A DNA stretch of 64,000 nt from Tubulanus polymorphus (taxonomy: Eukaryota; Nemertea; Palaeonemertea; Tubulaniformes; Tubulanidae), in the NCBI RefSeq assembly GCF_964204645.1, contig NC_134025.1, positions 20,986,001-21,050,000 of the forward strand, given 5' to 3'. The notes beneath the pieces were generated by a model. The model was not told the origin of the DNA. It did no database searches and saw only the letters and a list, made by a program, of their open reading frames with translations. Of this stretch, positions 5,701 to 56,000 are shown in pieces. Every line of letters begins with the position of its first letter. Position 1 is the stretch's first letter. A program made the translations under genes and the position numbers.

Positions 5701-8700
5701 AATTCAATTCAATTATTTATATATTCAAATATAAAATGACTTTATTGATCCTTGATATATTATATGCGTATATGATTAATATCATCTATTTTATTGTCGA
5801 CATTATCAAGCAATATGTGTATTGTTTTTCAAGGCGTCATTACACTTTCAAGTTGGTAATCTTGTTCAGATAATCTGATTCCCGTATCAAGAGTGACTTG
5901 TAACCATTATCTAGACAAACCTTATACATACACAACCTTAATGCGCTCCACGCTCCAATTATTCGGTTTTACGAATGAAATAAACATTCATCGCAAATTA
6001 TTGTTTTATTTCTTATTAGGATAATAACAGAATACAAGAAATCAATATCAGCTACAATGAATTTTCCGAAAAGGGAGGAGAATTGCTCGGGCCGGCCATT
6101 TGTACGTGTTCGTTTGCGCATTCCTATATTTAAGAAAACCACCACATGGGTAGTTCTAATCATCTTGCTTTATTGTAATTCAGCCGAGAATGAAGTCATT
6201 GAGAAATTGGACTTGAGCTGGAATCATCTGCGGTTAAAAGGTGGCGTGGCCGTAGTAGACGGAGTCAAGGTAAGGCCTACGTGCGCCGATTGGTTAGATC
6301 GGGTCTAATTTTACAGAAATACAATGCAATCCCAATGATCCTATCGTTGAGACTTAGGTTTATGAGCATGACCCGTCAAAATCAACAGTTTCGCCTGTGA
6401 CAGTACTTTGTGATAAAATTTCGAAGCCTATCGTCAAATCAAAACGTTTATGTACATGTATACCGTCAAAATATCTAGCAACAGCTTAATAACACCAGAT
6501 GGCGATACCATACGATGAATGTGTGCCTTTTGGATCGTTGTTAGATGATTTGACTTAACAGACGATAGACTTTTACATTTATCAAAGTATAGACAAATCG
6601 ACGAAACGCTTGATTTTGACGGCTTATTTAATTGCTTCGATTCGATCATGTGGTGGCTCTGTAAAGGGCCTCGTATAACAACCCTATATTTGAGACAATT
6701 AAGCCGGTTTCTTTTTGTTTGATTGATATTGATGCCCTTTATTTACGCATGGTGAATGTGTGAATGTTTGTTTTCAGAATAACGCGCGCTTGAAATCGGT
6801 AAATTTGTCATTCAACGGTCTCGGAAATGAGGGAGCATGCGCGCTAGCAGAGCTATTTAAGAATAACAACGTTCTTCTCGAACTGGACTTCAGCAGCAAC
6901 AGAATTATGCCAGAAGGTGCGCTACTAATGGCCAAAGGTCTCGATGCAAATGAAACCCTAAAAGCGTTACGGGTATGTATCTTTCGATATTATAGTAAAC
7001 CTTCAGTTAATCGGATCTTTTGGGGTCAAGAAAATATCCTCCGACTTTGAAAAAGTCCGACTAGGATAAGTAGGATTTCCAGCCTTTTTCCGAAAACAAC
7101 GACTTGAGAATTGATTTCCGTATGGAAAAACCAAATCAACATCTATAAGAAATCATTTAAAACACTGAAATATTTCGGGCTAATTTTTCTATTCAAATAT
7201 ACTAACCAAATCTAGAATAATTCATTTTTTATCATCTGATCCCCGAAACTAATAATAGAATCATCTAACATTTCAGGTAGCAAATAATCCTATTGGATCT
7301 GCAGGGGCGTTGGCGTTGATAAATGCTATACATAACGACAGGAGTCTTCTTAAACTTTTCGACCTAACCGTAAGATATCGTTCACAGATGTATTGGTTTG
7401 TTATTCAGTTTACAATCGAATGTTCCATTCCGTAATCCATATATCAGCTTATTTTCATGATAAGATTAGTTAACTACAACTGCACCATCCTCGCCCGGCA
7501 GGGATTCGAACCTGATGGTATCGAGACTCGCCACAGAAAAACACCCCCGCTTTATTCTAGCCTGGGTTTTTCGATCTATATTTTATCCATGAAATCTGCC
7601 TCAGCGATTATACAACAGGCAATCTGATTGGTGACGCACGTTTTCTTGCGGCAAACCTGCGCATGTCTGATGCGCACCCGGTCTAATGCAGCAGTCCCCT
7701 GCCGAGGGAGGATGTAACTGCCCATAAGAGAAGCTATCACAGTGCCCTCGTTCAGAATAAGCTGGATATCTTACTGACCTCTTACAGGGTATTCAAGTGT
7801 GTAAAGAGTTCGATAAAATTCACAAAGAAATGCTCGAATCCGGAAGAGATATAGTAATTTTACACGGAGGCATCCTCGGCAATTACATTATCAAAGGATC
7901 TAAGAATAGAAAGGCTGGACTAATAGGTAATGAACAAAATACCTCTTAGCCGCGATCACACGGAGGCGATTTAACCCGGGCCAAATTGGCACGGATCAGG
8001 CCCGAGTAAAATTTGGCCTGTACGTAAATAGAGAGCGCGTTCACACGCAAACCAATCACTAAATACTAAACAATGCTTTAACAAAGCGAAGCGAGTCGTT
8101 TCCGGAACCAGTTGCAATTCACACGCAATTATTTTTTGGCCCGTGCCAAATTCGGCCAAAAACGCTCGTGTGATCGCTGAAGTAGGCCCGAATAAAAACA
8201 TCGGACCAGGCCCGAACAAAATTCTAGCACTGGACAAAGTTTGGTACTGGTACTGGAAATGACCCACATCGCTTTGTTTAAGCATTGTTTAGTAACGAGT
8301 GGTGTGCGTGTGAACGCCCTCTCTAATTAGACACGGGCCAAATTTGACTCGAGCCTGATCTGCACCAATTTTGCCCGGGCCAAATCGTCTCGTGATCAAG
8401 ATTATCGAGAGCATTCTAAAACCCGAGTACCCTTGAGTGATTTGCGTTTATTTTTTCATTTTATAGCTGACGCGACCGACGAAGATCGCGAAATGAGCGA
8501 ATTGTTCGGCACTCCGCTGGAAATATTCATGAAAACAGATCCGATGGCGATTCTGAAATCGTACGTTGACCGTAATAACCTACGACTCGTTGACCTTTTC
8601 AACCGATTCGATAAGGACAAGAATTACAAGATAAGTCTCGAAGAATTCAAAAAGGGGTTAGCGGTAAGTAGTATTGCAAAACTCGGCGGCGCTTGGGAAT

Positions 8701-9452
8701 TTGATGATTTTGATAATATTCTCCGTATCGTGTATATCGTTTATGAATTATATATTCAAGATGGCGGACGTTGGCCTAACAGAAAACCAAATAGAAGCTT
8801 TGATAGCAAGACTTGATAAATCTGAAAGTGATGGAATGGTAGATTACAGGTAAACGCTTGTCAAAAATGTTTATATAATATTTAGGTTCTAACCTCGCAA
8901 GTTACCAATACTCTACAATGCTATGATTATATTTGCAGGATTTTGGCCAATGGCGTTTCTTAGCTTTTCAAGTATATGTTTATACGTTCATAACATTCAA
9001 TTCTTGTTACATCAAACCTTTGACTGCCGGGTGTTTCGTTAGTTTTTAACTAAAATGTATTTATCACTAATTAAAGACTTTTATTGCCAAAATCATTTGT
9101 ATTATGTCAGTCGAAGGGTTTCCATTTATTTCGAAGTTGTTTTTGCCAATTTACGTTAATCGTTTATCGTTTTCTTTTAATGCAACGTACATTCCATATT
9201 GAATTCAAGGAATAAAAGCGAGTTCACTGTAACGGTTCATAAAAAGCGATCTTTTCATCACAGCCTAATATGTATTTTCTTTTGAAGCTACCACGGTCAA
9301 TTCCTTCGTATTTTTCACTTGTTGAAATCCCTTCTATCAGCCGTAATCGATTCCATCTTTATCATTTCAGGGAACTGGCCAAAGGATCGCAACAGCTCAT
9401 TCAAAAGATTAGAAAACTTACAAAGATGGAGAACAACTTAGTAATCAAATAG
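2760..9452 (+). CDS. LRRC74-like leucine-rich repeat protein with C-terminal EF-hand
   Basis: Fourteen exons give 506 residues: 2760-2807, 3097-3176, 3434-3516, 3885-4057, 4152-4259, 4748-4841, 5103-5156, 6184-6269, 6778-6972, 7277-7369, 7788-7926, 8467-8663, 8761-8849, 9371-9452; all phases join. Residues ~70-340 are ribonuclease-inhibitor-type LRRs with repeated LDLS/VNLS...N..G.EGA motifs. The N-terminal part resembles LRRC74A/B (DGWDTDLEGE, then VVPVSYFMRHM and HHGLG). A canonical EF-hand loop (DKDKNYKISLEE) follows near the C-terminus, then a second non-canonical loop (LDKSESDGMVDYRE). It is probably a cytosolic scaffold with a calcium-sensing tail; the exact role is unknown. The first three exons are less certain: exon 3's acceptor has a weak pyrimidine tract, and the start could instead be the ATG at 3441. 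An in-frame stop lies just before 2760. AATAAA occurs at 9571-9576. Confidence 0.88.
3664..3783. repeat. Foldback element in LRR gene intron
   Basis: Arms containing ATATTTCGGGTGGTTGC on the left and GCAACCACCCGAATATTTC on the right face each other about 60 bases apart, in the intron between exons at 3434-3516 and 3885-4057. It is a short non-autonomous inverted-repeat element. Confidence 0.7.
4336..4573. repeat. Inverted-repeat MITE, GGGGCC...CATGGCTTA ends
   Basis: The left end reads GGGGCCAGTCGCACAGTCA and the right end is its imperfect complement (TATGTAACGACTGGTCC). Internal AGACT/AGTCT-rich sequence folds back (TTAGATTGGCTATAG against CTATAGCCAATCTATC). It is related to 31113-31250, which has better preserved ends. 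It sits in an intron of the LRR gene. Confidence 0.65.
5345..5740 (+). repeat. Dispersed repeat, copy A (related to 50.05 and 62.4 kb)
   Basis: The block carries GACGCCGTAAAAACCGTTAC, two GCGC(A/T)CTACGTCA motifs, GGTTGCCAGTCAATTC and an end reading ACTTTATTGATCCTT. Copies occur at about 50055-50450 (same strand) and 62425-62760 (opposite strand). No coding capacity or clear terminal repeat is visible, so the class is unknown. Confidence 0.65.
7484..7715. repeat. Foldback element with tRNA-like B box in its arm
   Basis: The left arm (CATCCTCGCCCGGCAGGG then ATTCGAACCTGATGG) is matched by the right arm CCCTGCCGAGGGAGGATG. The reverse strand of the left arm reads GGTTCGAATCC, a tRNA B-box sequence. 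Relatives are at 31.74, 37.1 and 53.4 kb. It is located in an intron of the LRR gene. Confidence 0.6.
7953..8397. repeat. GGGCC-rich terminal-inverted-repeat element
   Basis: The ends are near-complementary: GATCACACGGAGGCGATTTA with CCCGGGCCAAATTGGCACGG on the left, and CCCGGGCCAAATCGTCTCG with TGATC on the right. The interior repeats short GGCCCGA/GGGCCAAA motifs and looks like a nested foldback. A second copy is at 13626-13853 and a fragment is near 26412-26455. An open frame on the minus strand (7971-8285) is an artefact of the repeat. Confidence 0.75.
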
Positions 9453-9598: not shown

Positions 9599-12500
9599 TC
9601 AACGTCTTACTACAACGGGCGCCTGCAGTTCATAAATTGGCTCAGTTTCTGTATCTGGACCTGGTATGTTTGGCAACGGCCTTCCTCGAATTGATGTATC
9701 TTCGGTCTGAACGTTATCGTTGCCACCCATCACCATTTCATAATCAGCAAGTCCGTTATCATCGTCATAGAATGTTCTAGGCGACAGCACGGGACTGTCG
9801 TACTTCACTGATTGCGTCATTCTATTCGCTTTAATCCTCACCGACGGCTGGGCCGAGGTGAATTTCGGGCGTGATAAGTCCCCGTCTGTTCCAACGTGAT
9901 GAGCATCTTGAATATTACCGGGTTTCGGTTTGCCGAAGACGCCACTCATGTCAAAATATCCATCGCTACTTTTGCCCAGTCTCCTATTGACGTTGTTGTC
10001 TGAAGCGTACGTTTCGTTGTCGAATTCAATCGGATTTGCCATCTCCAATGTTCCTCCTCTGATCTTTTGCTTTTTTCTACGGAGGATATAGAAAAAAAGT
10101 AAAACACTGTATCCTATTCTAAACTCTTCAATCGGGAAAAGCAGGGGTGGATCTAGGACATTTGTAATGCCGGGGTCCATGAGAAAAGAAAAGATAAAGC
10201 AGCAATGCCATGGGCTACTAGCGGGTCGACCCTCGGTATATTTCAAAGGTTAATATCCGAAAGGATGAGTTTCAAATTTCCAGATTTTAACAAGTCTTTG
10301 TATATCTTGATATAAATTCAAACCTTAATTACGTAGAAGGCCAGGGTCCGGTTCATCTAAGTGATAATTTAATGAATCCCTGGCTGTTATATTTCAAAAC
10401 GTTTTTATGACTGCAGTTTATCATTGGACATATCAATGTATGGTACATTCTCGGACACTTTCTGTGCCAATTATTAAATTGCGTTCGCATGTGGTGGCTT
10501 CGATGATTTGCATCGTTATTATCCCCGTACTTACATATTTTTGCGATATCTGATTACTACTGATGATACCACGATGAAGACTATCAAAGTAGCGAGGATG
10601 GTAATTCCGGCTAACGCACCTAAAATGTATACATGTAGTTTGATTATCTATCAATAAAATCTCAATCAAACATATGTATGGGCCGATGGCTTAAACGAGT
10701 ACCCAACCCAATATCAGTCAATGTATCAAATGGAAAAATATTTCAAAACACCGGTCAACATTTAACAGCTTTTCTATCACTTGCAACCTTACGTACCTCG
10801 CGTCAGTGTATCTCCTTTAGGATTGGCACCGGTATCTATAAGAAAAAGATGTTGTATAATCGGTTGCACATTTTGATAATGAGTGACGTTATGATAACTT
10901 TAGAGAATCACAGCGCGAACTGAATTCAATACTCGGGAAAGCCTGAGTTGAGGTTCTACACCGCAGGGTCGCTGGTGGCTGACGAGACCAATTTGCAACA
11001 GGTATGTGGTCCACCCACTGCCTTGGCTGCATACACGGGTTTATAAGTTAGCCGAATACTAACTACGGGCCACATTGATACCCACCAAGTCAACTGAAAA
11101 TCACCTGATTCGTATCATACTATGGTGACTGATTCGGGCCAAACTCAAAAAACAAAGATATCAAAATATTAAAAAATATCTTTCATTCAGACAACACGAA
11201 AATCCGTTTTAACACTACGTAAAATATGAGCTTTTCGTTCTAACGCCAAATACGTATGGTACCTACGTACGTACGAATGTATTTCAAATAATTCTAATGT
11301 GGTACAAAACAGTATGGTTAGTTGGATTTTCAATTTTCGTATAAATGTAGAACCGATTACATACGCCATTTAGCGGCATACAAACCGGGTATACTAGTGG
11401 CATTTCTAGGGCTAGTGGTCAGCAATGTGGTACGATGCGATGGTACTGCGTCGGTACTAGGAGAATGAAAGCTTGTCGTATTGTTTTCATCGTAGGTGGT
11501 TGTTACTACTGTCGTCACAGTGGTTTCAATTGGAGTCGTCGGCTCGGCTGTTGTTTGCGGCAAAGTAGTCCTGAAATCTGATGCATTGAAATAATCATTG
11601 AAACAGATTTGTGTGAAAATCAATGCTTTTTGGCTCGAGAGCCCTTTATGACACTACTCTATATTTGTGAATCTAGGTGTAATGGAAATAAGTATTGATA
11701 AGTATCGCATGATTCCATAAAGTATCGTCCTGGTGACTTGGAATGTTTACCTAGTTGACAAAGACTTTTTTCGACTCGATCCTTTAAGTTGAATCGCCAC
11801 GCTGCAGCGGTACTGTTAAACTTGAAAAAAGTTGGCCAGGCCTTTTTTCCTCTGAACAGAATGATATTCGGTTTCCATGCCGTATATACGGCTTCATTTT
11901 CTACATACAAAACGAAATGTGAAAGAACGCCGTAAGATCGCTAAGAAAAGCGAAATGCTGGTGACAAGAAACTCTGTACTTCAATTAAGTACACGGACGA
12001 CAGCTAAAACATTCGTTTTTCTTTTGATATATATCACGAGTACAAATATCTCAATTATTTGAACAAACATTCGACTAAACGCTTAAATAAACACTTGACT
12101 TTAAAGGACAGAGTCATTCTCGTTCAGTACGGTTTGAAATGAGCTTGCCTATATCATTACCGTAGAGTGGATTTCGTCCCCAAGTCCACAAATCTTTCGC
12201 CAGACCAATCCAGTAACCATCGTTCTTCCCGCTGTTGATCAGTATCTCTGTCAATTTCGTGTGAGACGTTTTATCGAAAATTGAAACCAACGACCCGCCG
12301 AGCGAATTGCATCTCAAACGTGCCTCAAACCACGTCAAAGCCTCCTCGAATATGACTACGTAAGTATTTTGGTCGATTTTGTGATTATTCAAACCACGAG
12401 CAGGCATTCTATCTAGAAAAGTTATACAATGTGTTAAGTTATTCCTCATGAATTCACAGTCTTCTACATTCGTGAATGTACCCCCACGTCGATAGTCTTA

Positions 12501-15116
12501 TTCGTCGCGGTTTTGATATTCATAAAAAAATGCGAGGATAACTTACTGAAACTACATATGAAATATTTCTGAATTCCACACCGATTGCTAAACGCGTAAA
12601 ATGACGAGTTTTGTTTCAAAAAAGCTCCGCATGCCGCCGCACCGTCAGGTTTCCCGATTGACCATAATTTCGTCGAATATTCTTCGCTCGCTGAAAAATA
12701 ATATAAATCCTACATAGGATTGTAATTGATAATCAGATGCCTGACGACTTTTTTGAAACCAATAGATACGTAACTAGAAAACCTCATCGTCGTTTGTAAA
12801 ACGGCTAAATCTTTTGCAAATCATGAAAAATTTAGGTCATACCTATACGTGTAGCCTACACTCAAAACGTGTAGTGCCATTTCTTATGACTTGATACTGC
12901 ATACAAGATTGAATATTTTAGTATTATCTCATATTAATCAAATGATATGAAAATGAATTGTTAAGATTTCTTTTTTACTATATATACATAGCTTTATTTC
13001 AAGGAAAATATCACAATAAGTTATTTTGCTGAGGTCAAAATTGACCATTAATGGCATAGTTAAAAATGAAATATTTCTAGAAAGTGATACATTTAGAAAT
13101 GAAAATATTTTCTCATGTTCAGATATTCAAATGGGTAACGTGTCCGTGAGGTGGATGTTGATATGTATTATGTATAGTGTAGATGTTCTTGGGAAGGGAA
13201 ATTATATAAACCGGATAGATATTGATTAGAAAATCTCATCATATCCAAAATGTAATTTATATAGCCATATGTTTGACTGCTGCAGATTCATTTCAACGGA
13301 GAGAACAATTATTGAACCTATGATATCCGTTTATACGCCAGGAATGAACAGAGCGCGGCGTACTCCGTCTGGATGTATTCAGTTCTGTGATAAGTATAAA
13401 CGCTTTTATCTAAAATCATCGCTCTATACCTACTTTGGATATTGTAGATATAAACGTTGTCGATTCCACCGCAAAGATTATTACTGTCACCCCGACACGG
13501 TACGTCGCAATTGTTTTGACTAACCGACGATGCTGGTGACCATGATTTCGCACAAAGACACGTATCACCTCCCTAGAAAATACTATCTAAAATTCGACCA
13601 ATTATGTTCAGTAATATTTTAGCCACGGTCACAGGAGCATTTATGGTGCGTACCAAATTTGGCCCGACAAAAAACGTCGGACCAGGCTCGAGCCAAATTG
13701 CGTGTGAATCGCATATTGTTGCGGGGTGTCTCACTTCGCTTTGTTTGAGCATTGTTTAGTGGTTTACGCGCGCTCTAATTAGGTACGGCCCAAATTTGGC
13801 GCGGGCCCGATAGTACCAACTAGATCCGGGCCAAATACTCTCCGTGTGATCGCAGCTATATTGTTAAACATTCAGACAACTCCAATTGCTGGATATATCT
13901 CACAATATGTATCATCCTAACGTTGGTCGTGCCTGTTCAAACAAGCAAGTGCGTGGTTCTTTACCTGAAGAGCCGCAAATTTGTACTGTGCCTGCGATCT
14001 ACAGCTTTTGATACAATTTAATGGGCTTATTGCAGCTAGCTTTTCTGTACGCGTGAAAGTTTCGTTATCCCCTTTGTAGCATCCTTGCGCTTGTAAAATT
14101 ACGTTCCCTTCAAATGAAATGGAATATATAGAAGCATCAAATTGATGGCAAGTTAATTCTGCATATCTAATTGTACTTGAATCTTACCATTAGTCCAACG
14201 CCATTGGTCAGGGTTGTAATAAAGCCCGATTCTATATGTAAGTGATTTCGTCAATTGCGCAGAAAGAAAATGTTGTATGTCTTCATTCCTAATCTCGGCT
14301 CTCGTCGTGTCAATTGGACAGCTTACCCCCTAATAGGCCATAGGAACAAAAAACACCGGCATCAAAAGTATCTATTTTGAAAGAACTACATTTTAAAGGT
14401 GTAAAATGAACCGCGAGCACAGTTTTGTATTTTGAAGAAATTATGCTGTTTTCTTTGGACATACCTCGTGAAAATAATAACAAACTCCGTCGTATTCGAT
14501 TCCTCGTGTCGCCAGTTTCGTTGGGCATGTTATGTTAGCTCCTGTTTCTGAAAAATGACCACGTGATATTGATGTCACTCAGCTATTGCCCATTGAATAG
14601 TCATGAAAATATATATTTTTAAGTAGTGCATTTCAACTGCATTTTAGCGGGCATCATCAAATGCAATCTTATACTCATTTCTTCTTTTAATTCTTCATTC
14701 ATTTCATATACCCACAAAAGATAATTTGCATAGAAAAAAAGTTGGCACATTATACTGAAGAACTAAGAAACAAGTAAAGCTATGTTTCATCACCCTGGAG
14801 TAATCATTTGACTACAAATGATAACTCCAAGATTGCATTCAGCACGCGTATTCTTTCTTCTCGCATATTCTTTCTTCCTCTAGTTTCACAGGGCTAAACG
14901 CGATAAAATTTGTATCGTTGAAGTCAATTGTCATACAAGTATGAATCATGATACTAAAGGAACACGCGAATCTAAACAATCATATCTAATCCAAGGATTC
15001 TTAGTTTATTAAACAAATATTTACTCAATTCAGTATATACACACGGTACGAACGATTTACCTACCCGACTGAAATATTGCTACGGTGAAAATGAACAGAA
15101 AAAATGCAAGCGCCAT
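9599..15116 (-). CDS. Type I receptor: CTLD with inserted WSC, second CTLD, TM, Tyr-rich tail (receptor A)
   Basis: Eleven exons (in transcript order): 15116-15065, 14547-14465, 14329-14188, 14083-13965, 13572-13434, 12690-12547, 12412-12161, 11900-11751, 11577-11386, 10619-10535, 10076-9599; 611 residues, all phases consistent. Signal peptide 1-17; first CTLD half ~24-92 (GVCYYF, then QWRWTNG); WSC ~93-177 with eight Cys and CGGIDNVYIY; second half of CTLD1 ~179-226 (LWSIGKPDG, CGIQKYFIC); CTLD2 ~230-360 (WFEARLRCNSLGG, WIGLAKDLWTWG); Ser/Thr stalk 361-424; TM ~425-447; tail to 611. The tail holds YFDM (a YxxM PI3K-type motif), YEMV and YELQ. CTLD2 lacks a clear FIC ending. A plasma-membrane glycan or pattern receptor is inferred; the ligand is unknown. 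The paralog is at 19589-24455. Confidence 0.85.
13626..13853. repeat. Second copy of the GGGCC-rich TIR element
   Basis: This shares CGGACCAGGC, CGCTTTGTTTGAGCATTG and CTCTCCGTGTGATCGCAGC with the element at 7953-8397, but is shorter and decayed. It lies in the receptor A intron between the two WSC exons. Confidence 0.65.
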
Positions 15117-19588: not shown

Positions 19589-22500
19589 CTAGTTTTGAAG
19601 AGTTTCGTAAGTGCTCTCTGTTTGAGGTCCTGAGTTCAGCTCCGTAGGCTGTAGATTAACAGTGGCACCGCGTGGATCCGGTACTGGATACGCGGAATAG
19701 ACGTAACAATACGGATCGAGAGTCAGCTGTTCGGTGTCATTGTTCTGGTTAAAACTTCTGTTAAACTCGTCGACGACGTCATCACTAGGAGTTGGAATCT
19801 TTTCTCGTTGTCGAACAGGTGGCGGAGGGGCGTCATCGGGTGGCGGAGGAATGTCCAACAGATTGTCGAGGAAATCGTAATCGCCAAGGTCATCACGATC
19901 TGTTAGAACGGACGTTTTAGCGGTGAGGGGAGAGTGACGTTTTTGCGTAGGTACTTTTTTGACTGGTTCGTCCACTACGCGTGTTGTATGCGGCATCGGT
20001 GTATCTCTAGATGGAGCCATACCGGATACCAAATAACCACCCTCGTCCACATTGGTTTCAGGTCCGTGTTCCTTGATCGGATCTTCGGCGTTCCCCATTC
20101 GTGAGATTTTACTCAGTTCATTTCTCTGCGAAAGTGTAACGACATTTTCGCTGCCAACCCGATAGCGTACCGTTGGTGGAACAACTGCCACGTTAGATGC
20201 GCTCTTAGGTCGGTTTGGTTGAGCTGAAACGCGACCATCATTGGGGTTGACTGCGCAAACCGGGCCGCCGATCTTCTTGATATGCGTCGTTTGTGAGGAT
20301 GAGTATGACAGATTCTCGAACTCTGACGCCGCCGGCGGCAAACGACCAGCTTTGAACTGCTTATTCGTTCTACAGAAAGAAAAAATAAATTTATTTCAAC
20401 TGGATTACCTAGGATTATCCTTTGGTTTCATAATATTTTGATTTTCTAGCTTCATAGTGCAAGATGTTTTCTTACTTCCATCTCCGATAGACTACGAATA
20501 GTAATACAAGTATACCAATAAGCAGTATGACACCAATTACAATTCCAGTTACGCCACCTACAAAATAGATTTATATGTTAATTTGGATATCTCACATGTT
20601 ATACAGGTGCCACATGATTGTATTCTATAAATGTCTATTGCCTACCGGGTCCGATTTTTTCATTCGTAGCTCCACCAATTATTGCTGGAAATTAAGGGAT
20701 GAAAGTTGCAACAAATGTGAAAGATTAATGCGTTTATTCTATAGCGTGCACGCCAAGACATAACCCGAAACACGAAACAGGAACGCTTAATCCGGTGACC
20801 GTGTGCGTTGCTCCGAAACACGAAGAGCGTTTATTGAAACACGGCTTCGCTTCGTGCGATCGTGAGAAAACCGAATCATCGAAACACAAATATCTGCTTC
20901 GTGTTTCTGGTATATTTCTTGCTGCTAGGCTTAAGAATACATAAATATATTCCTACCACTAGCCGTGTGAGTGCTGCGAATGATTTCTGTCGAAACATCA
21001 ATAGTTACTCGCTCAGTGGAATGTGGTGTAGAAGAGACATCGGAACGAATAGAGGACGCGTTGTAACCAGCTGTAGACTTTTCTGTAGATGATGTATTAG
21101 AAACGGTAGTCATCTGAGAAGAAGAAGTCTTCGGAACTGTTGTAGGACTCAGGGAAATCGTTGTCCGTGGAACAATAACTAGAAATGTAAGATCTTAAAT
21201 TGAGTAGTTGAAATATGACATTTATTACAATATGATCTGCCTGAGGAATGTTTTGTTGCCAATGATTAAGATACACTGTTTATATACAATGTGTTACAAT
21301 GATTGATATGGCCGCGTTTTGTGCAATATACCTTTTTCGCAAATCTTTTTCAATGTCGACATCGTTGCACTGTTAGATACTGTCTTGCGTTGCCATGTCA
21401 TGTGCTTTCGGGATGACGGCAACTTGTTTACCCGCCCGCAAGAAACTACGCTAGGTCCAGTGAACAACACGGGCAAATCTTTTTCCCAAGCGGTGAACAC
21501 TGCTTCATTGTCTAGAAAAGAAATCTCCATAACCACGATCACGAAAGACATATAGAATTTAGAAAACGAAAGGGTTATTCATTGCAGCAACGTTTTGACT
21601 GTAACAAAAACATTTTTATGAGCCATCATCAGATAGGCATTTCATTCTCTAAATTGTTTGTTTTTTGGGTTTATAGTCACTTATCTTTTCTAGTAATGTA
21701 TATACAAGTTGAAATACCTAAACTAACGCTGTCTCCCCAATACCACAAATCTTTCGTAAGTCCAGTCCAGAATCTTCCATCGGCGTTTTTCAAAAGTCTG
21801 GATACTGTCCTGTAAGCGGACATATCTCTGATTTCCATTAAATGACCCCCTTGCGATTTACAAATCATTCGGGCTTCGAACCAAGAACTGGATTCTTTTG
21901 ATACGTTCGCATCGATTCCTATTGGAGAGAGAAATAGAGGCGCCATATATGAAATACAGCCGACAAAGTTATATTACAAACCAATAGAAAACTGATAACA
22001 AAAAACTTGTCCAATGTGCCCAATTTTTGTCTGAAGTGTGGAACTGGACACATAGATTGATGATTTTACACCTTTTGTCGATCAACATTAAAGAGGGTCC
22101 CAATGAACCTTATTTCTTTGGTTCTCGAACCTTTTTCGGTGGATTCACTGGCGGGAGTGTCATGACCAGAGCGAATACAAAAAGGGAAATTAAACTGGAA
22201 TCTCGTTACAACGAACTTCAATCTGTTCGTTATGACCGATACCCGGTAGTTCGTTATGTCTAGACGTATGGAAATCATTAAATTCTCTTACTTGGGACAC
22301 GATTTTGAATTTGGAATATCCGATTAATCGTTGTATCTGAGTTCGTTGTAACGAGGTTCCACTGTAGTATCATTATTTCCATGATTCCGCTTTGAATACT
22401 CACCCGACATGCAGATAAACTGTTTTGGTGATATGCATCGTTCGACTGACATCGTGTACTTGTCTTCGGTGGCGTTGTGTTGCAGTGCTCCACATCCTAA

Positions 22501-24455
22501 AAAACCATTTGTCTCATCAGGATAACCACTCGGCCACACATCCTCCGGTAGTTTATCCGTAGCTGATGAAATAAATGAACTTTCGTTATCCTACAACCGC
22601 ATGTATGAATGTTTTTTTCTAGCACATGTTCATCTCTTTCCGTACCTCGAATACTGTAAACGTTCACTGAGTCGATTCCTCCGCAAAATTGCAGCTGATC
22701 TCCGGGACACGATACGATACACGTATTCTGTGGCTCAGTTGGCATCCAGTTGGCGCTGCAGAAACATTCATTTCCATTCTGAAATGATTCACAAATTTTA
22801 AATGAAATTCAAAAGTCAATAGGCTTCTTCACATTCGAACTGTGAATGAAATATCGAGGGAGGGCGGGGTTGAGATACGTAAAACTTTACTTTGATTCCG
22901 GCGTGAGAATTTGTACTGCCCTGTCGCTTACATTCGGCGATACATAACGCAGCAGACATATCCGTGGATGATGCTGCAGACCTTAGCGGTTCAAAGTATT
23001 TCGTTGAGAAGCAACCTTGGTTGCGCAATGGTAAGTTATCTATAATGAAAACAATCCGTTGAGGATTTTGTAATTGAAATGCAAGGATACAGGTAAACGA
23101 TGTCGCGTTTAGAATATTGAAAAATTAGGTATTTTTTTCGTTTTTACGAGTTCAAAACTTAAGGAAACAATGGAATCTTAATATACAATGTATTATCAAA
23201 TTAGTTTTGAAATAAGCTATGTTGACCTTACCTGATATCCATCGCCACTGTGTTTTGCTGTAACTTAAGCCGATTTGAAATAAATGCCATTCTCTAGTCG
23301 ATGCCTCCTTGGCGAGAACGGTGTTTATGCTCTCATCCCATATGTTCACTAATTCCGTATCCCGAGGACAAGTTTTCCTCTGTAAAAAGTGACGAAAATA
23401 AAAGTGTCGAATCTAAATTCGATGCATACTCGCCGCATGGAGCGAGTAATAAGTTTATCAAATGGCGATATCTCTTATAGGGACTGTGCATAAAAAAACG
23501 TACACACAAAATTGTAAAATCCACAGAATGTCCACATTGCACTAACATTATTGCCAATCAGACACAAAAGCAATTTAAGACATCGGATATCCAGTCATGC
23601 AAAATAATGGGTTTTTTATATTCACTTATTCATTTTATTATATACACTCCGGACTACGTAATATATATTATCTTGAAAACATATATGTGAACATTTTCTC
23701 TAATTCAAAGTTGGAGTAATCAATATCCATGTAAAGCACTTGAAGTCAGAAGAGAACATAGATCATCTGTCAGTAGAGAACGCCGACATTATCATCCATA
23801 AAGGATGTCCCATTGGTGATCAACCCTTCCCTTGAAGTTACCGTGAAGAATGACTACCACAACCAAACAACCCCCTCCACCGTGTCCACATAAATCCAAA
23901 GTTCACACCCCTCGCCGTTCGACCTTCGACGTCTTTTATGAACAGCCCCTAATTAAACTTTCACGATGAATCGTTAAGTGGTATATTTAACCCAGGCATT
24001 TTATTTCAATTCAAGCATATGTTATATGATATCTTACGTTTTCTTTAGCCGGATCGAGGAAGTAGTAACATACACCGTTATACCAGACTCCTTTATCGAT
24101 GGTCAGGACAGTTGGACATAGCGTACCGGTACTTTCTTGGCAATCTAATCGATGAAATAGCACATCATTGTCACATATACATAAAAACCGGTTCTGGCGT
24201 TAATTCGGGTACGGTTCAAACGATCATCAAAATGTCTTGATTTCATTTTCTTTCAAAACCTAAGCCTGGACCCCGTCCTGAAGTTATAAATTTGGATTTA
24301 CCACCTGGGTCTAGAATGGTTGCTCCATTTCAATTATATAGGCGAGACCGTACCAAATGAAAATATGATAATTCTTACTCCTAGGCTACAAATAACTCAC
24401 GTGAGTGGATGATCAAGCACCCGAATATAATCATTGCATAGTACACAATAAACAT
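19589..24455 (-). CDS. Type I receptor: CTLD with inserted WSC, second CTLD, TM, long Tyr/Pro tail (receptor B)
   Basis: Twelve exons (transcript order): 24455-24401, 24144-24038, 23379-23232, 23039-22891, 22778-22646, 22562-22404, 21918-21718, 21511-21332, 21178-20957, 20684-20646, 20557-20476, 20369-19589; 751 residues, all phases join. Signal peptide 1-18; CTLD1 first half ~24-103 (NGVCYYF, QWRWISG); WSC ~112-197, eight Cys, CGGIDSVNVY; CTLD1 second half 198-250 (WPSGYPDET, KQFICMS); CTLD2 251-377 (WFEARMICKSQGGHL, FWTGLTKDLWYWG, KKICEK); Ser/Thr stalk to ~464 including a 39-nt micro-exon; TM ~466-486. The tail holds YDFL, an ITIM-like STYETL near the C-terminus, and DIPPPPDDAPPPPVRQ, an SH3-ligand-like stretch. 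Architecture and phases match receptor A, so this is a tandem paralog with a diverged tail and therefore probably different signalling output. Confidence 0.86.
22084..22366 (-). repeat. pogo/Tigger-like terminal repeat fragment
   Basis: On the minus strand this begins TACAGTGGAACCTCGTTACA followed by ACGAACTC, a terminal sequence typical of pogo-family MITEs. Internal GTTCGTTATGACCGATA and CTCGTTACAACGAACTTC repeats follow. A related end is at about 2117 (+). It lies in a receptor B intron. Confidence 0.55.
23478..23953. repeat. TIR element, GGG(A/G)CTGT.CATAAAA ends
   Basis: The left end is AGGGACTGTGCATAAAAAAA followed by CGTAC; the right end, read on the minus strand, is TAGGGGCTGTTCATAAAAGA followed by CGTC. 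The element at 40257-40697 has similar ends (GGGCCGTGCATAAAGTATGT). It lies in a receptor B intron. Confidence 0.65.
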
Positions 24456-34783: not shown

Positions 34784-36821
34784 ATGGATCGCGATAAACG
34801 AACTATGAAATGCGACGAGTGCGATGCAGATCCGAATCGGTCTCAAACCCAGGAGCAACAAATTGCCGAATTGACACAAAGACTAAAACAAAACGAAGCC
34901 GAAGTTGTAAGTTTAAAGAAGCTTCAGACGGCTACTTGCGAGGACTTAACGGCAAAAATCGACACGAAAAATGTCGAGTTGGACTATTTCGTGAGCGAGA
35001 AGAATGAATTGTCCGATGAGATATCAAGTTTACAAGCGCTTATCAATGACAAGGACGAACTTATAGCTCTCATGGACGAACAAATAAATGAGTTAGAAGA
35101 AAGTAACGGTTAGTTCAAGCAGCTCAGGAAATATGGACATTTCGTCTTGTTTTGAGCCCAAAGAACTTCTGGTTAGGTGACACATATAGGCATGCAAACC
35201 TGGGTGAAAATGATTCCGTTTAAGCCCAACGCTTAAAAAAACGTTTTGCGAAATACGTTTTGTGAAAAACGTGTTTTCTGTTTCGGCGAAACAAATTTTT
35301 TGCCGTTTACGTTGGGCTTTAATGTTGCCTACGTCTGCATGTCGACCTTTTACCACGAACCGAGATATAGGCCCCTACTTCACCCAGTCCTGAAAGTGGC
35401 CGGTTCGCGGCGCTCCGTATAGGCCTACTGAGTGTTCTAAGAGCTCGCGTCGATAGCGATATACCACTAACACTAAGGTTCTCAAAGAAGCCTATACATG
35501 TACCAGGGTGGCCACCTACCTGGAAATCAGGAACAAGTCAGGGAATTTGTTGAGATTGTTATAGGCCTATAGAGCGCGCGTAAGATCAAACAGTTTCCGT
35601 CTAAGCCTTATGTATTTGACTGTGTTAATTGATCGGAAAACAATGTGCATGTCAGGGAATAGTCAGAGAAAAGTCAGGGGAAATAGCAAATCAAACTGGC
35701 CACACTGATGTATGCTAAAATTATATGACAAGAAAACATTTCCCTTATGTGCGCGTACTCGTTATTCCTGCTTTCACCGTTTCGGTTATGATCCACTCTT
35801 CTTCTATAGACGAGAAAGGACGAACGATTCGAGCTTTGGAGAAAGCGTCGAAGGAGCTGAAAAATTACAACGCTCAATTGAGTATCGACAGGAAAAATGT
35901 TTGCGAAGAAAATCGTAAAATGAGAGAAGAAATAGTCGGGATAAAACTCGAGAAAATGGAACAAGAGATAATAAACAAGAAACTAGCCGAAGAAGTGAAC
36001 CGACTGACGGACAAAACCAGATCAAAGACGGGTGAAATCGCTATCCAGATTTTACGTATATTTGTAGCAGAATTTTTAGAATATTCTCATTGAAAACGTT
36101 TCATCTTGCAGGTAGATGTGGAGGCGTCGTCACCAGCGAGAGCGCGTCGTCTTGGAATACATGCTCCAGTTCGTCAACCGGATCTTCGTCATCACCGACG
36201 TTTTCATCGGCCGAGAACGTGTCCATCGAAGAAATGATCGCCTGCTGCAGCGAATCGGATAGCCCGGAACAATCCGTGTTCGAAGAATTGGAACGTTTGG
36301 TTTTCGAGGAAGACGCGTGCGGCGGTGATAACGACACGACCTCCGCGTACTCGAGTCTCACTTTGTCACGGACGCAATGTAATTCGGATGATGCCGAAGG
36401 TATTCCCGCATTCATGAACGAATACTACACTCACCGCACCGAAGAAGATACGGATTTGGATCTTGATACTTACGTGTTAGTAGATTCTGTCGAGTGCGAT
36501 GTAGAAAAGCGATATGACGACGAAAACTCTGCATTATTCGATATTTCCTCGCCTAGAACGCCCGATTTTGGATGCGGTTGTTTTCCGAGTAACGAGGTAA
36601 CGATACGGTATCAGTCGACGCGTAACCTTTCTAGCATTAACGCTGATTCAAGTGATAATGTCAGTCTCGGTGTTTTTGAATTGTCAACCGACGCAGAAAT
36701 TGCCGCAGAAAATTCAAAAAGGGAAAAGTTGAGAAGGGTCATTAAATTTACCGATGGAATTTTGTCTGACGAGCTAAATTTTCTGATCTTCCACCGCAAA
36801 TTAGACATCTCTGTATTTTGA
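34784..36821 (+). CDS. Unknown protein: N-terminal coiled coil, Ser-rich/acidic C-terminal half
   Basis: Three exons (34784-35108, 35810-36031, 36112-36821) give 418 residues with phase-1 junctions. Residues 1-20 contain a CDEC motif. Residues ~23-180 are almost unbroken heptad-like, Lys/Glu/Leu-rich coiled coil (EQQIAELTQRLKQNEAEV, then LDEQINELEE-type and KMEQEIINKKLAEEV segments). From ~183 the protein is low-complexity and acidic: a Ser-rich run (STGSSSSPTFSS), then Glu/Asp-rich segments, an SPRTPDF motif and a basic KREKLRRVIKF near the end. No signal peptide or TM helix, so a cytosolic or cytoskeletal adaptor is likely, but no family is recognised. AATAAA overlaps the stop codon (36821-36826) and repeats at 36825-36830, so the 3' UTR is probably only ~20 nt. 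Confidence 0.75.
35504..35707. repeat. MITE with CAGGGTGGCCAC ends, copy 1
   Basis: Left end CAGGGTGGCCAC, right end GGCCACACTG, rich in CAGGGAA repeats. An opposite-orientation relative is at 49266-49496. It lies in the first intron of the coiled-coil gene. Confidence 0.8.
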
Positions 36822-53019: not shown

Positions 53020-56000
53020 TTATTCTCTTTCATAGCAGATGCACTCCTTGTCGCTGATAGGAACACACAAATATTTCGACGGATCGCCAGAAACGATGCA
53101 TTCTCGATAAGAAGGCTTCGCGTTTTTGCCTATGCCTTTCGAACCTGCTCCAAATATCGCCAATCGTCGGCCCGATTTGCATTCGCAAACTGTACGGCCA
53201 TTTTCAGTTTTTACTCCAGTACAGTAGTTGGGGCATTCTGTGCGCGCTTCACGAAACCGGCGAAGTTTTCTCGGTCGTTCTATTGAAATAGAAAATGACA
53301 GATGACTAAGTATAATATAGAAATAAACCAGGTCGAAATACAGGTCTCAAATTATTCATCTTTCGAAGCACGTAAAAATCACCCTCCCTCGGTGGTGATT
53401 CGATCCTGATGGCATCGAGAGACTACGGCTGAGTCTCGCGATGTAGCATCAGGGTCAAAGCCCTGCCGAGCAAGGATGATAAAAACAAATGATTCTTAAT
53501 AATGCTGCTAACTTAGTCAGGCTGTGAGTCATAACAACCAATAAAAAGACCCTGACATTCTCTTAAGAACCAATAGGGTTACACTGTTACTTGCAGTTGG
53601 GACGTAAAACTTTAAACTAAGCTGAACTGTGAATTAAACGTCATGAATACGGCTACATGTGTTACCGGCTAAGGTAAAATCTAGCAAGGAATTTACTTTA
53701 ACCGATAGCTAAAAATGCGCAGCCGGCCTTACATCATAACTTCGGCACAATTTCAAATAGATAAAAACATATTGAGTAAAATTCCACAATATACAATCAA
53801 AAACAACAGCTATTGTTATATTCCTGACGTTTCTCTGACAAATACTTTTTTCAGATCTTTCAAAAGCCTTTTATTCACTTAATATAACTAAACTCTTAAA
53901 AATTTGCATTGTTATGGTATTAGAAGGATTTCACTCACGTGGTTTCGTAGTTACTTAGATAAAAGAAAGATGTACGTTAAACAGAATGGTGCGAAATCAA
54001 ATATTTATTATATTGAGTATTGAATCCCGCAAGGTTCGGTCTTTGGACCACTTCTCTTTCTTTTATATACAAATGATCTTTGGAAATCACTTCTCTTAGA
54101 TTTCTTTAATGTATTCTATTCGCTGATGAAATATACTACCATTAGTATTACTGGTAGAAATATGTGTACAATTCCCAAAGATGTAAATACTTATCTCAAA
54201 ATACTCATTGGTTCTCCGGAAACTCACTCTAAATCTAATCATTAAACCTTTTCAATTCGATCTTACTGAAGCACAGCCTTCATACTTGTACTGTGTCCTT
54301 CATTATACTGCCTGTTACGTCATCACATCCGATTGTTTGGTTTATAAATTGTGTAATATTGTACCGATAAGTACGCCAGTAGTTTTATTTGTAAATTACC
54401 TCTGAAGTATAATGTAAACAAATTCACATTCAAATTCAACTCTGAAGATGGGTGGAAGTTAGTCGTCGAATAAACACTATAATCCGTGTACACTGTAGAA
54501 AAATGAAGAAATCCCACACTTCGAATTAAATTATACGATAGAATTTATCATTTTGAAACCGCAACGTTTCGGCTGTTGACTAACAGCCATCATCATTTGT
54601 AGCTGCAGCTGATTCGGGCCATAATAGAAAAGAATATGTGATTCATTCTCCACCACCAATTATGTTTGTTATTTTACACCAGACGAAAATCCGTCTTAAA
54701 GTCGTTTAGATAAAGTTTCTTTTAACGTATTTTTCGTGTCGTCTAACAATTATTGGATATTGAGGACTCGTATTTTCATAACAGGACCCCAATCAGCCAC
54801 TCTGTAAAACTATGGATTCAGCAATAAACTACGTCATTGAAATTGCGAATCCTACGACATAGGTTTTCGCGTATTTCGAAAAATCATAACTTAAACGAAA
54901 CACAAGTGTGTAAGTATTTGTGTAATAACGGAACGTTAGGTCAACATATTCTCCACGTTTCGTATGGTCGGTGAGAGGATTTTTACATACACCAATCTTG
55001 AAATCCAAGTCCTTAAAATTGCATACGTAGGTAATGGTAATAGTTACGCAGATTAGTGGGTATCGACGGTATCCAATGACTCGCATCCAGTTCGTGTGCC
55101 CCGAAGGGAATATCTAAATTTGAATGTTGAATGTGAATAATATTTATCCATTCGTATATGTATCGTATGACTTATGTTTTATACCAATGAAAATCAGGTT
55201 TAAGGTATTTATGTCGTTCTACAATCTCTGTTATCTAATCCAATAAATGAGGTTTTTTAAAGTCTGGTTCTTTTTATCTTTTCGGAGCCATTTTTCCACC
55301 CTCCTCGGGAATACCGGTAATCGTTTTAAAACCACTAACTGAGGAACCTTTTTATTAGAAACGATCCTCGCAAAAATCTCCTGACTATGTTTTAATTGCG
55401 AAATACGTCTAGCCGGCCGTCATATCTTAAAGGCTTGTGAAAGGCTGAAAAAATTGATACCTCGTTCCTCCTTTCTGCTGAGCTTAAAAGTTGACCCGGC
55501 CGGCCGCCTATCAACCCTGTACATAACCTTTTTTAATCATGATCAAGCTAACCATAACAGACCCGACAGTGATAGAAATGAACTGATTTCATTGATTTTC
55601 AAAATGACACGGCCGATTAGGAGAAACAAGGTATCCTTTCTGTTTAGCCTAAAGAGAATGTTAAAAAAGAAAGTATATTTTGTCAACGGTACACCAGACA
55701 CTCGCATTATGATATCATATGATATGATATGTGTCACGCACCCTGCATTTTTCTCGTATGTGCTTAACAACCTGCGACCGCTTGCAACGCGATGCGATCG
55801 ATTGCAAGGGTCGCAAATAGGAATCAGGGCGCTCTACAACTGGCAACTATCTAGAAGCGACGAATTCGATCAACTAGCAGCGATCGTCCGACAGATTTTT
55901 TCCAGTTGCGGTGACCTGAACACGTATTTACGACACGTTTGTAAGCGACAGCGACGGAAAAACCATCCGTCGCTCTTTAGCTGCTAACTTTTTCAGTAAA

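What the first reader, a model, noticed from the sequence alone, without database searches (positions are those of the whole stretch)
12547..14547. WSC domain nested inside a C-type-lectin domain (receptor A)
Seen: CTLD-like sequence runs to QWRWTNG, then an 8-Cys WSC domain (GCYKGD ... CGGIDNVYIY), then CTLD-like sequence resumes (LWSIGKPDG ... CGAF ... CGIQKYFIC). Known: in CTLDs the W.W..G core is followed by the long loop, the PD-type motif and the last two Cys, so the two flanks make one domain. Inference: the WSC sits in the long-loop (ligand-binding) region. Polycystin-1 has WSC and CTLD side by side; a nested form is not one I know.
Basis: partly seen in the sequence, partly recalled or inferred. 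Interest (0 to 1): 0.85.

Follow-up and report, generated by a model that had tools for sequence, protein, structure and literature searches.

The report
Lectin fold carrying another domain inside
In this apparently animal genome a family of predicted cell-surface receptor genes carries one whole small domain (WSC) plugged into the loop with which another, a C-type-lectin domain, usually binds its targets, which suggests how new recognition receptors can be built by shuffling exons.

Summary
[quoted passage not shown] Gene B (24455-19589) has the same layout and phases. Seven more genes of this genome have it: nine in all. Each WSC has 8 Cys; its borders are phase-1 introns in 8 of 9. In the ninth (gene C) the back halves of WSC and CTLD share one exon. 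With the WSC left out, the flanks pass Pfam's Lectin_C cut-off in 8 of 9 genes, and a profile of six of them matches solved CTLDs over nearly its whole length. The second CTLD has the same phase-1 intron without a WSC: an empty site. Exon shuffling of a WSC module into a loop intron, then gene duplication, fits best. No structure model could be made and no transcript was seen. Receptor function is inferred. No description was seen in the papers searched.

The parts
15065..15116 (-). Gene A exon 1: start codon and signal peptide (by eye), ends phase 1
14465..14547 (-). Gene A exon 2: CTLD1 front part (CP...GVCYYF), ends phase 0
14188..14329 (-). Gene A exon 3: CTLD1 front half to W.W (IGLYYNPDQWRWTN), ends phase 1
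13965..14083 (-). Gene A exon 4: WSC front half, phase 1 to phase 0
13434..13572 (-). Gene A exon 5: WSC back half with CGG motif, phase 0 to phase 1
12547..12690 (-). Gene A exon 6: CTLD1 back half (W..GKPD..CGAF..RC....FIC), phase 1 to phase 1
12161..12412 (-). Gene A exon 7: CTLD2 front half, ends at the matching phase-1 intron, which holds no WSC
   Evidence: Lectin_C 31.7 bits
11751..11900 (-). Gene A exon 8: CTLD2 back half (diverged; this CTLD2 has 2 Cys)
11386..11547 (-). Gene A exon 9: Thr/Ser-rich stalk
10797..10835 (-). Gene A exon 10: short stalk exon
10535..10619 (-). Gene A exon 11: transmembrane segment (by eye)
9599..10076 (-). Gene A exon 12: cytoplasmic tail with several Tyr, stop codon
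24401..24455 (-). Gene B exon 1: start codon and signal peptide (by eye)
24038..24144 (-). Gene B exon 2: CTLD1 front part
23232..23379 (-). Gene B exon 3: CTLD1 front half to QWRWIS, ends phase 1
22891..23039 (-). Gene B exon 4: WSC front half
   Evidence: WSC 39.6 bits
22646..22778 (-). Gene B exon 5: WSC back half, ends phase 1
22404..22562 (-). Gene B exon 6: CTLD1 back half (W..GYPD..CGAL..RC....FIC)
21718..21918 (-). Gene B exon 7: CTLD2 front half, matching phase-1 intron, no WSC
   Evidence: Lectin_C 35.7 bits
21332..21511 (-). Gene B exon 8: CTLD2 back half
20957..21178 (-). Gene B exon 9: Thr/Ser-rich stalk
20646..20684 (-). Gene B exon 10: short stalk exon
20476..20557 (-). Gene B exon 11: transmembrane segment (by eye)
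19589..20369 (-). Gene B exon 12: cytoplasmic tail with Tyr motifs (YVYSAYPV, YETL), stop codon

Best explanation
Gene A is a type I membrane receptor of a family of at least nine paralogues in this genome. A complete WSC (PAN/Apple-type) domain is inserted into the long loop region of its first CTLD. Shown by sequence: the order CTLD front half - WSC - CTLD back half - second CTLD in nine genes, and the WSC borders in phase 1. Inferred from sequence: the two CTLD halves fold together, tied by the usual disulfide from helix 1 to the C-terminus, so the WSC stands out from the face with which CTLDs usually bind ligands. Inferred evolution: a WSC exon pair with phase-1 borders was shuffled once into an existing phase-1 intron of the loop, and the gene then duplicated. 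Inferred function: the CTLD is a scaffold without Ca2+/sugar motifs, the WSC is the recognition head (WSC domains occur in a beta-glucan-binding fungal lectin and in the Wnt co-receptors Kremen), the stalk lifts the head off the cell, and the Tyr-bearing tail signals or drives uptake, as in innate recognition receptors.
For: Two complete 12-exon models with identical phases and GT-AG introns. Seven further nested genes C-I, modelled over CTLD1-WSC-CTLD1-CTLD2 (back half of CTLD2 of I not modelled). WSC has 8 Cys in 9 of 9; borders are phase-1 introns in 8 of 9 (in gene C the 3' border lies inside an exon). Joined flanks against Lectin_C: A 24.2, B 21.7, C 31.3, D 32.2, E 36.0, F 43.1, G 47.1, H 35.9, I 35.2 bits; 8 of 9 over the 22.6 cut-off. 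In intact G the best Lectin_C stretch is the front half (profile 5-67), in intact I the back half (68-106). A profile of the joined flanks of A-F matches solved CTLDs over positions 16-131 of 132 (CLEC4C 3wbq, E 1.7e-10; PLA2R 7qsr 1.9e-20 over 19-130) and the family's own CTLD2 profile (hhalign 97.4%, 116 columns). Cys counts: back half 3 in 9 of 9, WSC 8 in 9 of 9, front half 3 in 7 of 9 (B 4, C 2); if all pair, the back half needs a partner outside itself. Gene C has the WSC back half and the CTLD back half in one exon. H against I: pN/pS about 0.325/0.669, 0.215/0.902, 0.33/0.839 in front half, WSC, back half. Trees: nine nested WSCs on one side of a branch against 7 of 12 other WSCs collected (95/97); nine CTLD1s against eight CTLD2s (89/91, under the tool's mark for firm support). 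EPN/QPD in 0 of 9 nested CTLDs, WND in 1 of 9. The Wsc1 paper PMC9024836 (passages) gives the strand order b1-b5-b3-b4-b2; I infer that the two ends lie close together, which suits a loop insertion.
Against: No structure model: structure prediction turned the spliced sequences away. No transcript evidence. Gene B's joined flanks miss the Pfam cut-off by 0.9 bit. As single sequences against a profile of six CTLD2s, only E and F of 6 joined flanks beat all 1,200 shuffles; C, D and B fell within the shuffles and A was not listed, and the front half of F alone already scored 13.2 of its 17.5 bits. Helix 1 of CTLD1 is shortened in A, B and D, and missing with its Cys in C (by eye). With all 12 other WSCs, the long row L015 among them, the nested WSCs are not one side of a branch, and both WSC trees carry long-branch warnings. 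Silent sites of H and I are near saturation. Ligand, expression and signalling are untested.
Confidence: 0.62

Rival explanations
1. The two WSC exons are an optional cassette: the usual transcript joins exon 3 to exon 6 and makes an ordinary CTLD, and the WSC form is a minor isoform.
For: In the 8 genes other than C the WSC exon pair is flanked by phase-1 introns and its length is divisible by 3 (258-309 nt), so skipping both keeps the frame.
Against: In gene C the WSC back half and the CTLD back half are one exon (313 nt; WSC front exon 143 nt), so the WSC cannot be skipped in frame without the CTLD back half. The WSC is open with 8 Cys in 9 of 9 genes and has the lowest pN of the three parts between H and I (0.215).
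Confidence: 0.13
2. The nesting is real but the WSC is a passive spacer or loop plug; ligand binding rests on the second CTLD or on other surfaces.
For: The surface of the yeast Wsc1 domain shows no apparent pocket for ligands such as glycans (PMC9024836, passage). A second CTLD follows in all nine models (8 with both halves).
Against: CTLD2 has EPN/QPD in 0 of 8 and WND in 0 of 8, and only 2 and 3 Cys in A and B, so it is no obvious sugar binder either.
Confidence: 0.2
3. The flanks do not form one CTLD: they are degenerate remnants beside a functional WSC.
For: Flanks of A and B are weak Lectin_C matches (24.2 and 21.7 bits); helix 1 is shortened; weak single-sequence scores.
Against: Seven other members score 31.3-47.1 bits; Cys counts; H and I flanks change amino acids less than silent sites; matches to solved CTLDs.
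Confidence: 0.04
4. Gene-model artefact: exons of two genes or pseudogenes placed next to each other.
For: No RNA evidence is held; the models were made by hand.
Against: Nine genes on four contigs with the same order, strand and phases; one contiguous exon spans the WSC/CTLD border in gene C.
Confidence: 0.01

Closest known systems
Polycystin-1 (PKD1) and sea urchin SpREJ proteins
   Same: Human PKD1 has a WSC and a C-type lectin domain in one membrane protein (PMC1934368, passages).
   Different: There the WSC and the CTLD are separate domains (recalled, not tested here). The paper names WSC for SpREJ6, 7, 10 and hPKD1, and CTLDs for SpREJ1, 2, 3, hPKD1 and hPKD1L2. Pfam on full A and B finds no PKD or REJ domain, and the WSC lies inside the CTLD.
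Kremen-1 WSC domain (5fww) and yeast Wsc1 (7pz2; named from PMC9024836)
   Same: Among the nearest solved relatives of the WSC part (E 1.7e-13 and 3.4e-8); 8 Cys and CGG motif (PMC9024836, passages).
   Different: The match covers only the WSC part of the profile (88-172 and 103-176 of 228); no CTLD around it there.
C-type lectin-like domains such as PLA2R, DEC-205, CLEC4C, langerin
   Same: The profile of joined flanks matches them over nearly its whole length.
   Different: They have a loop, not a whole domain, at this place; with the WSC left in, the best stretches listed cover one half each (60 of 80 shown).
WSC-rich genes of the same genome (L013, L016, L015)
   Same: Same domain kinds; L013 has 6 WSC exon pairs followed by CTLD exons on the same strand.
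   Different: In the stretches read, WSCs stand beside, not inside, CTLDs.

Membership tests
WSC domain (PF01822) | Pfam match above the curated cut-off 27.8 | tested here: met
   A 47.5, B 39.6; C 43.9, D 52.8, E 52.0, F 56.4; G 53.1, H 53.7, I 62.2: 9 of 9
WSC domain (PF01822) | Eight Cys | tested here: met
   8 in 9 of 9
C-type lectin-like domain (PF00059) | Match of the flanks, WSC left out, above the curated cut-off 22.6 | tested here: met
   8 of 9 over the cut-off; B 21.7 just under
C-type lectin-like domain (PF00059) | Four core Cys (helix 1 to C-terminus; b3 to b5; pairing recalled) | tested here: met
   8 of 9 by eye on the sequences; gene C lacks the helix-1 Cys; counts
C-type lectin-like domain (PF00059) | Double-loop fold | not testable with these tools
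   spliced protein not accepted for folding
Ca2+-dependent sugar-binding C-type lectin | EPN or QPD motif plus WND | tested here: not met
   EPN/QPD 0 of 9, WND 1 of 9
Polycystin-1/REJ family | PKD, REJ, GPS, PLAT domains and several transmembrane segments | tested here: not met
   Pfam on full A and B finds only WSC and Lectin_C above cut-off; one transmembrane segment besides the signal peptide, by eye

The most novel reading that the evidence does not exclude
The phase-1 intron in the long loop of CTLDs is a natural docking port: in this lineage a whole recognition domain was plugged into the ligand-binding loop, turning a CTLD without Ca2+/sugar motifs into a display platform for a WSC head, and this design then expanded into a receptor family of at least nine genes, probably for self or microbe recognition.
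Probability: 0.35. Interest if true: 0.8.

Novelty: new variant of a known kind. Interest (0 to 1): 0.62.

Why it matters
The long loop is the part of CTLDs that differs most between receptors (PMC7618208, passages). Here it appears to accept a whole independent domain while the fold survives. That gives a natural example for domain-insertion engineering of lectin-like receptors, shows exon shuffling into a domain and not just beside it, and points to an uncharted receptor family whose ligand can be tested directly.

Tried and rejected
Exon profiles made from A and B alone did not find the CTLD back half of D; I found that exon by reading the translation. Single-sequence search of joined flanks against the family's CTLD2 profile was weak, so I rest on Pfam, PDB and profile-profile results. 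Other Pfam hits (such as Kazal, RIFIN, scorpion-toxin-like, Chordopox A33R) were all under their cut-offs and taken as chance.

Considered and rejected: a WSC beside a CTLD (the flanks are complementary halves of one profile); a mis-joined gene model (nine genes, one exon spanning the border); several independent insertions (the trees allow one gain; the tree, with all 12 other WSCs, does not show it; rows dropped: L015, L016_w2 and three L013 rows).

Literature: searches. 'WSC domain' with 'CTLD' gave 0 papers; 'WSC domain' with 'C-type lectin' 11, of which two titles concern polycystin or SpREJ proteins; the other nine were not opened. 'C-type lectin domain', 'inserted' and 'WSC' gave 3, seen as a listing; 'Lectin_C', 'WSC' and 'domain architecture' 0; 'C-type lectin' with 'nested domain' 1, not opened. 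I saw passages only of PMC1934368, PMC514892, PMC7618208 and PMC9024836; everything else as listings. The library lacks most papers of subscription journals, so a description elsewhere is possible.

Full report
What is there. Exons were read by hand from the sequence and checked by script: gene A has 12 exons from 15116 to 9599 (615 codons with the stop), its neighbour gene B 12 exons from 24455 to 19589 (752). In both, every intron is GT-AG and the phases at exon ends are 1,0,1,0,1,1,1,1,1,1,2. The predicted proteins read: signal peptide, CTLD1 front half, WSC, CTLD1 back half, CTLD2, Thr/Ser-rich stalk, transmembrane segment, cytoplasmic tail.

Is the WSC real? Pfam gives WSC 47.5 bits in A and 39.6 in B (cut-off 27.8). 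All nine family members pass and all nine WSCs have 8 Cys. Solved relatives include Kremen-1 (5fww, E 1.7e-13) and 7pz2 (E 3.4e-8), which PMC9024836 names as yeast Wsc1.

Do the flanks make one CTLD? In intact A and B Pfam sees Lectin_C only in CTLD2. With the WSC left out the flanks score (cut-off 22.6): A 24.2, B 21.7, C 31.3, D 32.2, E 36.0, F 43.1, G 47.1, H 35.9, I 35.2 bits; 8 of 9 pass. In intact G the best stretch is the front half (profile 5-67), in intact I the back half (68-106). A profile of the joined flanks of A-F (132 positions) matches solved CTLDs over nearly its whole length: CLEC4C 3wbq 16-131 (E 1.7e-10), lithostathine 1lit 16-132 (2.5e-10), PLA2R 7qsr 19-130 (1.9e-20, several CTLDs in that chain); 155 distinct chains at E up to 1, 60 shown. 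A profile with the WSC left in finds CTLD chains by one half each in the rows shown. Profile against profile, joined CTLD1 and CTLD2 of A-F match at 97.4% over 116 columns. Against this, as single sequences versus the CTLD2 profile only E and F of six beat all 1,200 shuffled controls; C, D and B did not and A was not listed. Cys counts add an argument: the back half has 3 Cys in 9 of 9 and the WSC 8 in 9 of 9, so if all pair, the back half needs a partner elsewhere; the front half has 3 in 7 of 9, 4 in B (one of them right after the signal-peptide exon) and 2 in C, which lacks helix 1.

More members. The family searches and protein searches with A, B, F and C led to seven more nested genes: C (C11:4.30 Mb, L005), D (C6:3.16 Mb, L006), E and F (C6:7.91 and 7.89 Mb, L007, L008), G (C6:5.19 Mb, L009), H and I (C3:4.27 Mb, L010). 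Their exons were modelled (CTLD2 back half of I not modelled; ends of the genes not modelled). The order CTLD front - WSC - CTLD back - CTLD2 holds in 9 of 9. The WSC is entered in phase 1 and has its inner intron in phase 0 in 9 of 9; it is left by a phase-1 intron in 8 of 9 (in C that intron is absent). Nine is a lower bound: I looked at few of the 89 WSC matches. Of five other loci with WSC matches (L001, L002, L013, L015, L016; 3.2 to 9.9 kb each) none showed the nested order; L013 has six WSC exon pairs followed by CTLD exons.

Gene C is the sharpest evidence. One exon (L005 5150-4838, minus strand) runs from the WSC motif CNC through CGG to W..GRP..C....KC....FICEYS without an intron. 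Its WSC front exon has 143 nt and the shared exon 313 nt, so the WSC cannot be skipped in frame unless the CTLD back half goes too. In the other eight genes the WSC exon pair has 258-309 nt and could be skipped in frame, so an isoform without the WSC is not excluded there.

How it arose. CTLD2 of the same genes has a phase-1 intron at the matching place (8 of 8 with both halves modelled); these introns are 73-260 bp by their coordinates, too short for a WSC exon pair. In six further loci scanned for CTLD exons with W.W, three exons in L011 and L012 matched the motif and all three have a possible phase-1 donor 6-8 residues on. The simplest account is that a WSC module with phase-1 borders was shuffled into such an intron. 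In the tree the nine nested WSCs fall on one side of a branch against seven other WSCs of the genome (95/97); five of the 12 collected were left out (L015 and L016_w2 as long rows, three L013 rows as near-copies). With all 12 the nested ones were not one side of a branch, L015 falling among them on a very long branch. The nine CTLD1s fall on one side against eight CTLD2s (89/91). This allows one gain before the duplications but does not prove it. Between H and I amino-acid-changing differences per site are below silent ones in all three parts (pN/pS about 0.325/0.669 front, 0.215/0.902 WSC, 0.33/0.839 back; part borders approximate, silent sites near saturation), as expected if the nested form is kept by selection.

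Where the WSC sits. A CTLD review (PMC7618208, passages) places WIGL in strand b2, WND in b4 and the Ca2+ sites I-III in the long loop region. The WSC lies after W.W and before W..G.P, that is at the start of this loop (mapping by motif, not by a model). PMC9024836 (passages) gives the WSC strand order b1-b5-b3-b4-b2; I infer that its two ends lie next to each other, a good shape for a loop insertion.

What it may do. EPN/QPD is absent from 9 of 9 nested CTLDs and WND present in one; CTLD2 has neither in 8 of 8. Canonical Ca2+-dependent sugar binding by the CTLDs is therefore unlikely. WSC domains occur in the beta-glucan-binding fungal lectin SiWsc3 and in the Kremen co-receptors, though the yeast Wsc1 surface shows no apparent ligand pocket (PMC9024836, passages). 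A Thr-rich stretch follows CTLD2 in A-F (G-I not read that far); in E it is a PTTTT-type run of several hundred residues. The tail of B and an open frame downstream of D, taken as its tail, share YVYSAYPV; the frames downstream of D and F have NPxY-type motifs (not spliced into models, motif meaning recalled). The most likely role is a recognition receptor whose WSC is held out on a CTLD scaffold. This is a proposal; ligand, expression and signalling are untested.

Known or new. WSC and CTLD occur in one protein in polycystin-1 (PMC1934368, passages). In the searches I saw no description of a WSC inside a CTLD, from listings and the passages named; the library lacks most subscription journals and I could not search other animal proteomes.

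Noticed in passing
window 6733-8816, + strand: Open frames with a leucine-rich repeat (LRR_6 36 bits, 6733-7047) and an EF-hand (EF-hand_6 29.4 bits, 8331-8813), possibly one gene next to gene A on the other strand.
   Followed up: partly
window 36036-36821 and 55385-55987, + strand: Two long open frames (261 and 200 codons) without a Pfam match at E up to 0.01.
   Followed up: partly
L013 328-4717 (C9:13.94 Mb): Six closely similar WSC exon pairs in tandem, followed by CTLD exons on the same strand.
   Followed up: partly
G000 as a whole: At least 89 WSC matches, exon by exon, with clusters on C3, C4, C7 and C9: an expanded domain family in this genome.
   Followed up: no
L015 1765-2517 (C4:24.42 Mb): WSC followed in one frame by sequence that looks like a PKD repeat (by eye), perhaps a polycystin-like gene.
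   Followed up: no
L007 1573-3894: Gene E: one open frame of 774 codons, mostly Thr/Pro repeats, with a hydrophobic segment near its end.
   Followed up: no
gene B tail (window 19589-20369) and L006 7489-8244 (downstream of gene D): Shared motif YVYSAYPV.
   Followed up: no
L008 3495-5898: The 2.4 kb intron between WSC and CTLD back half in gene F holds a stretch that reads MDLCRLCGSSSYR, perhaps mobile-element or zinc-finger remains (by eye; a Pfam try failed on stop codons).
   Followed up: no
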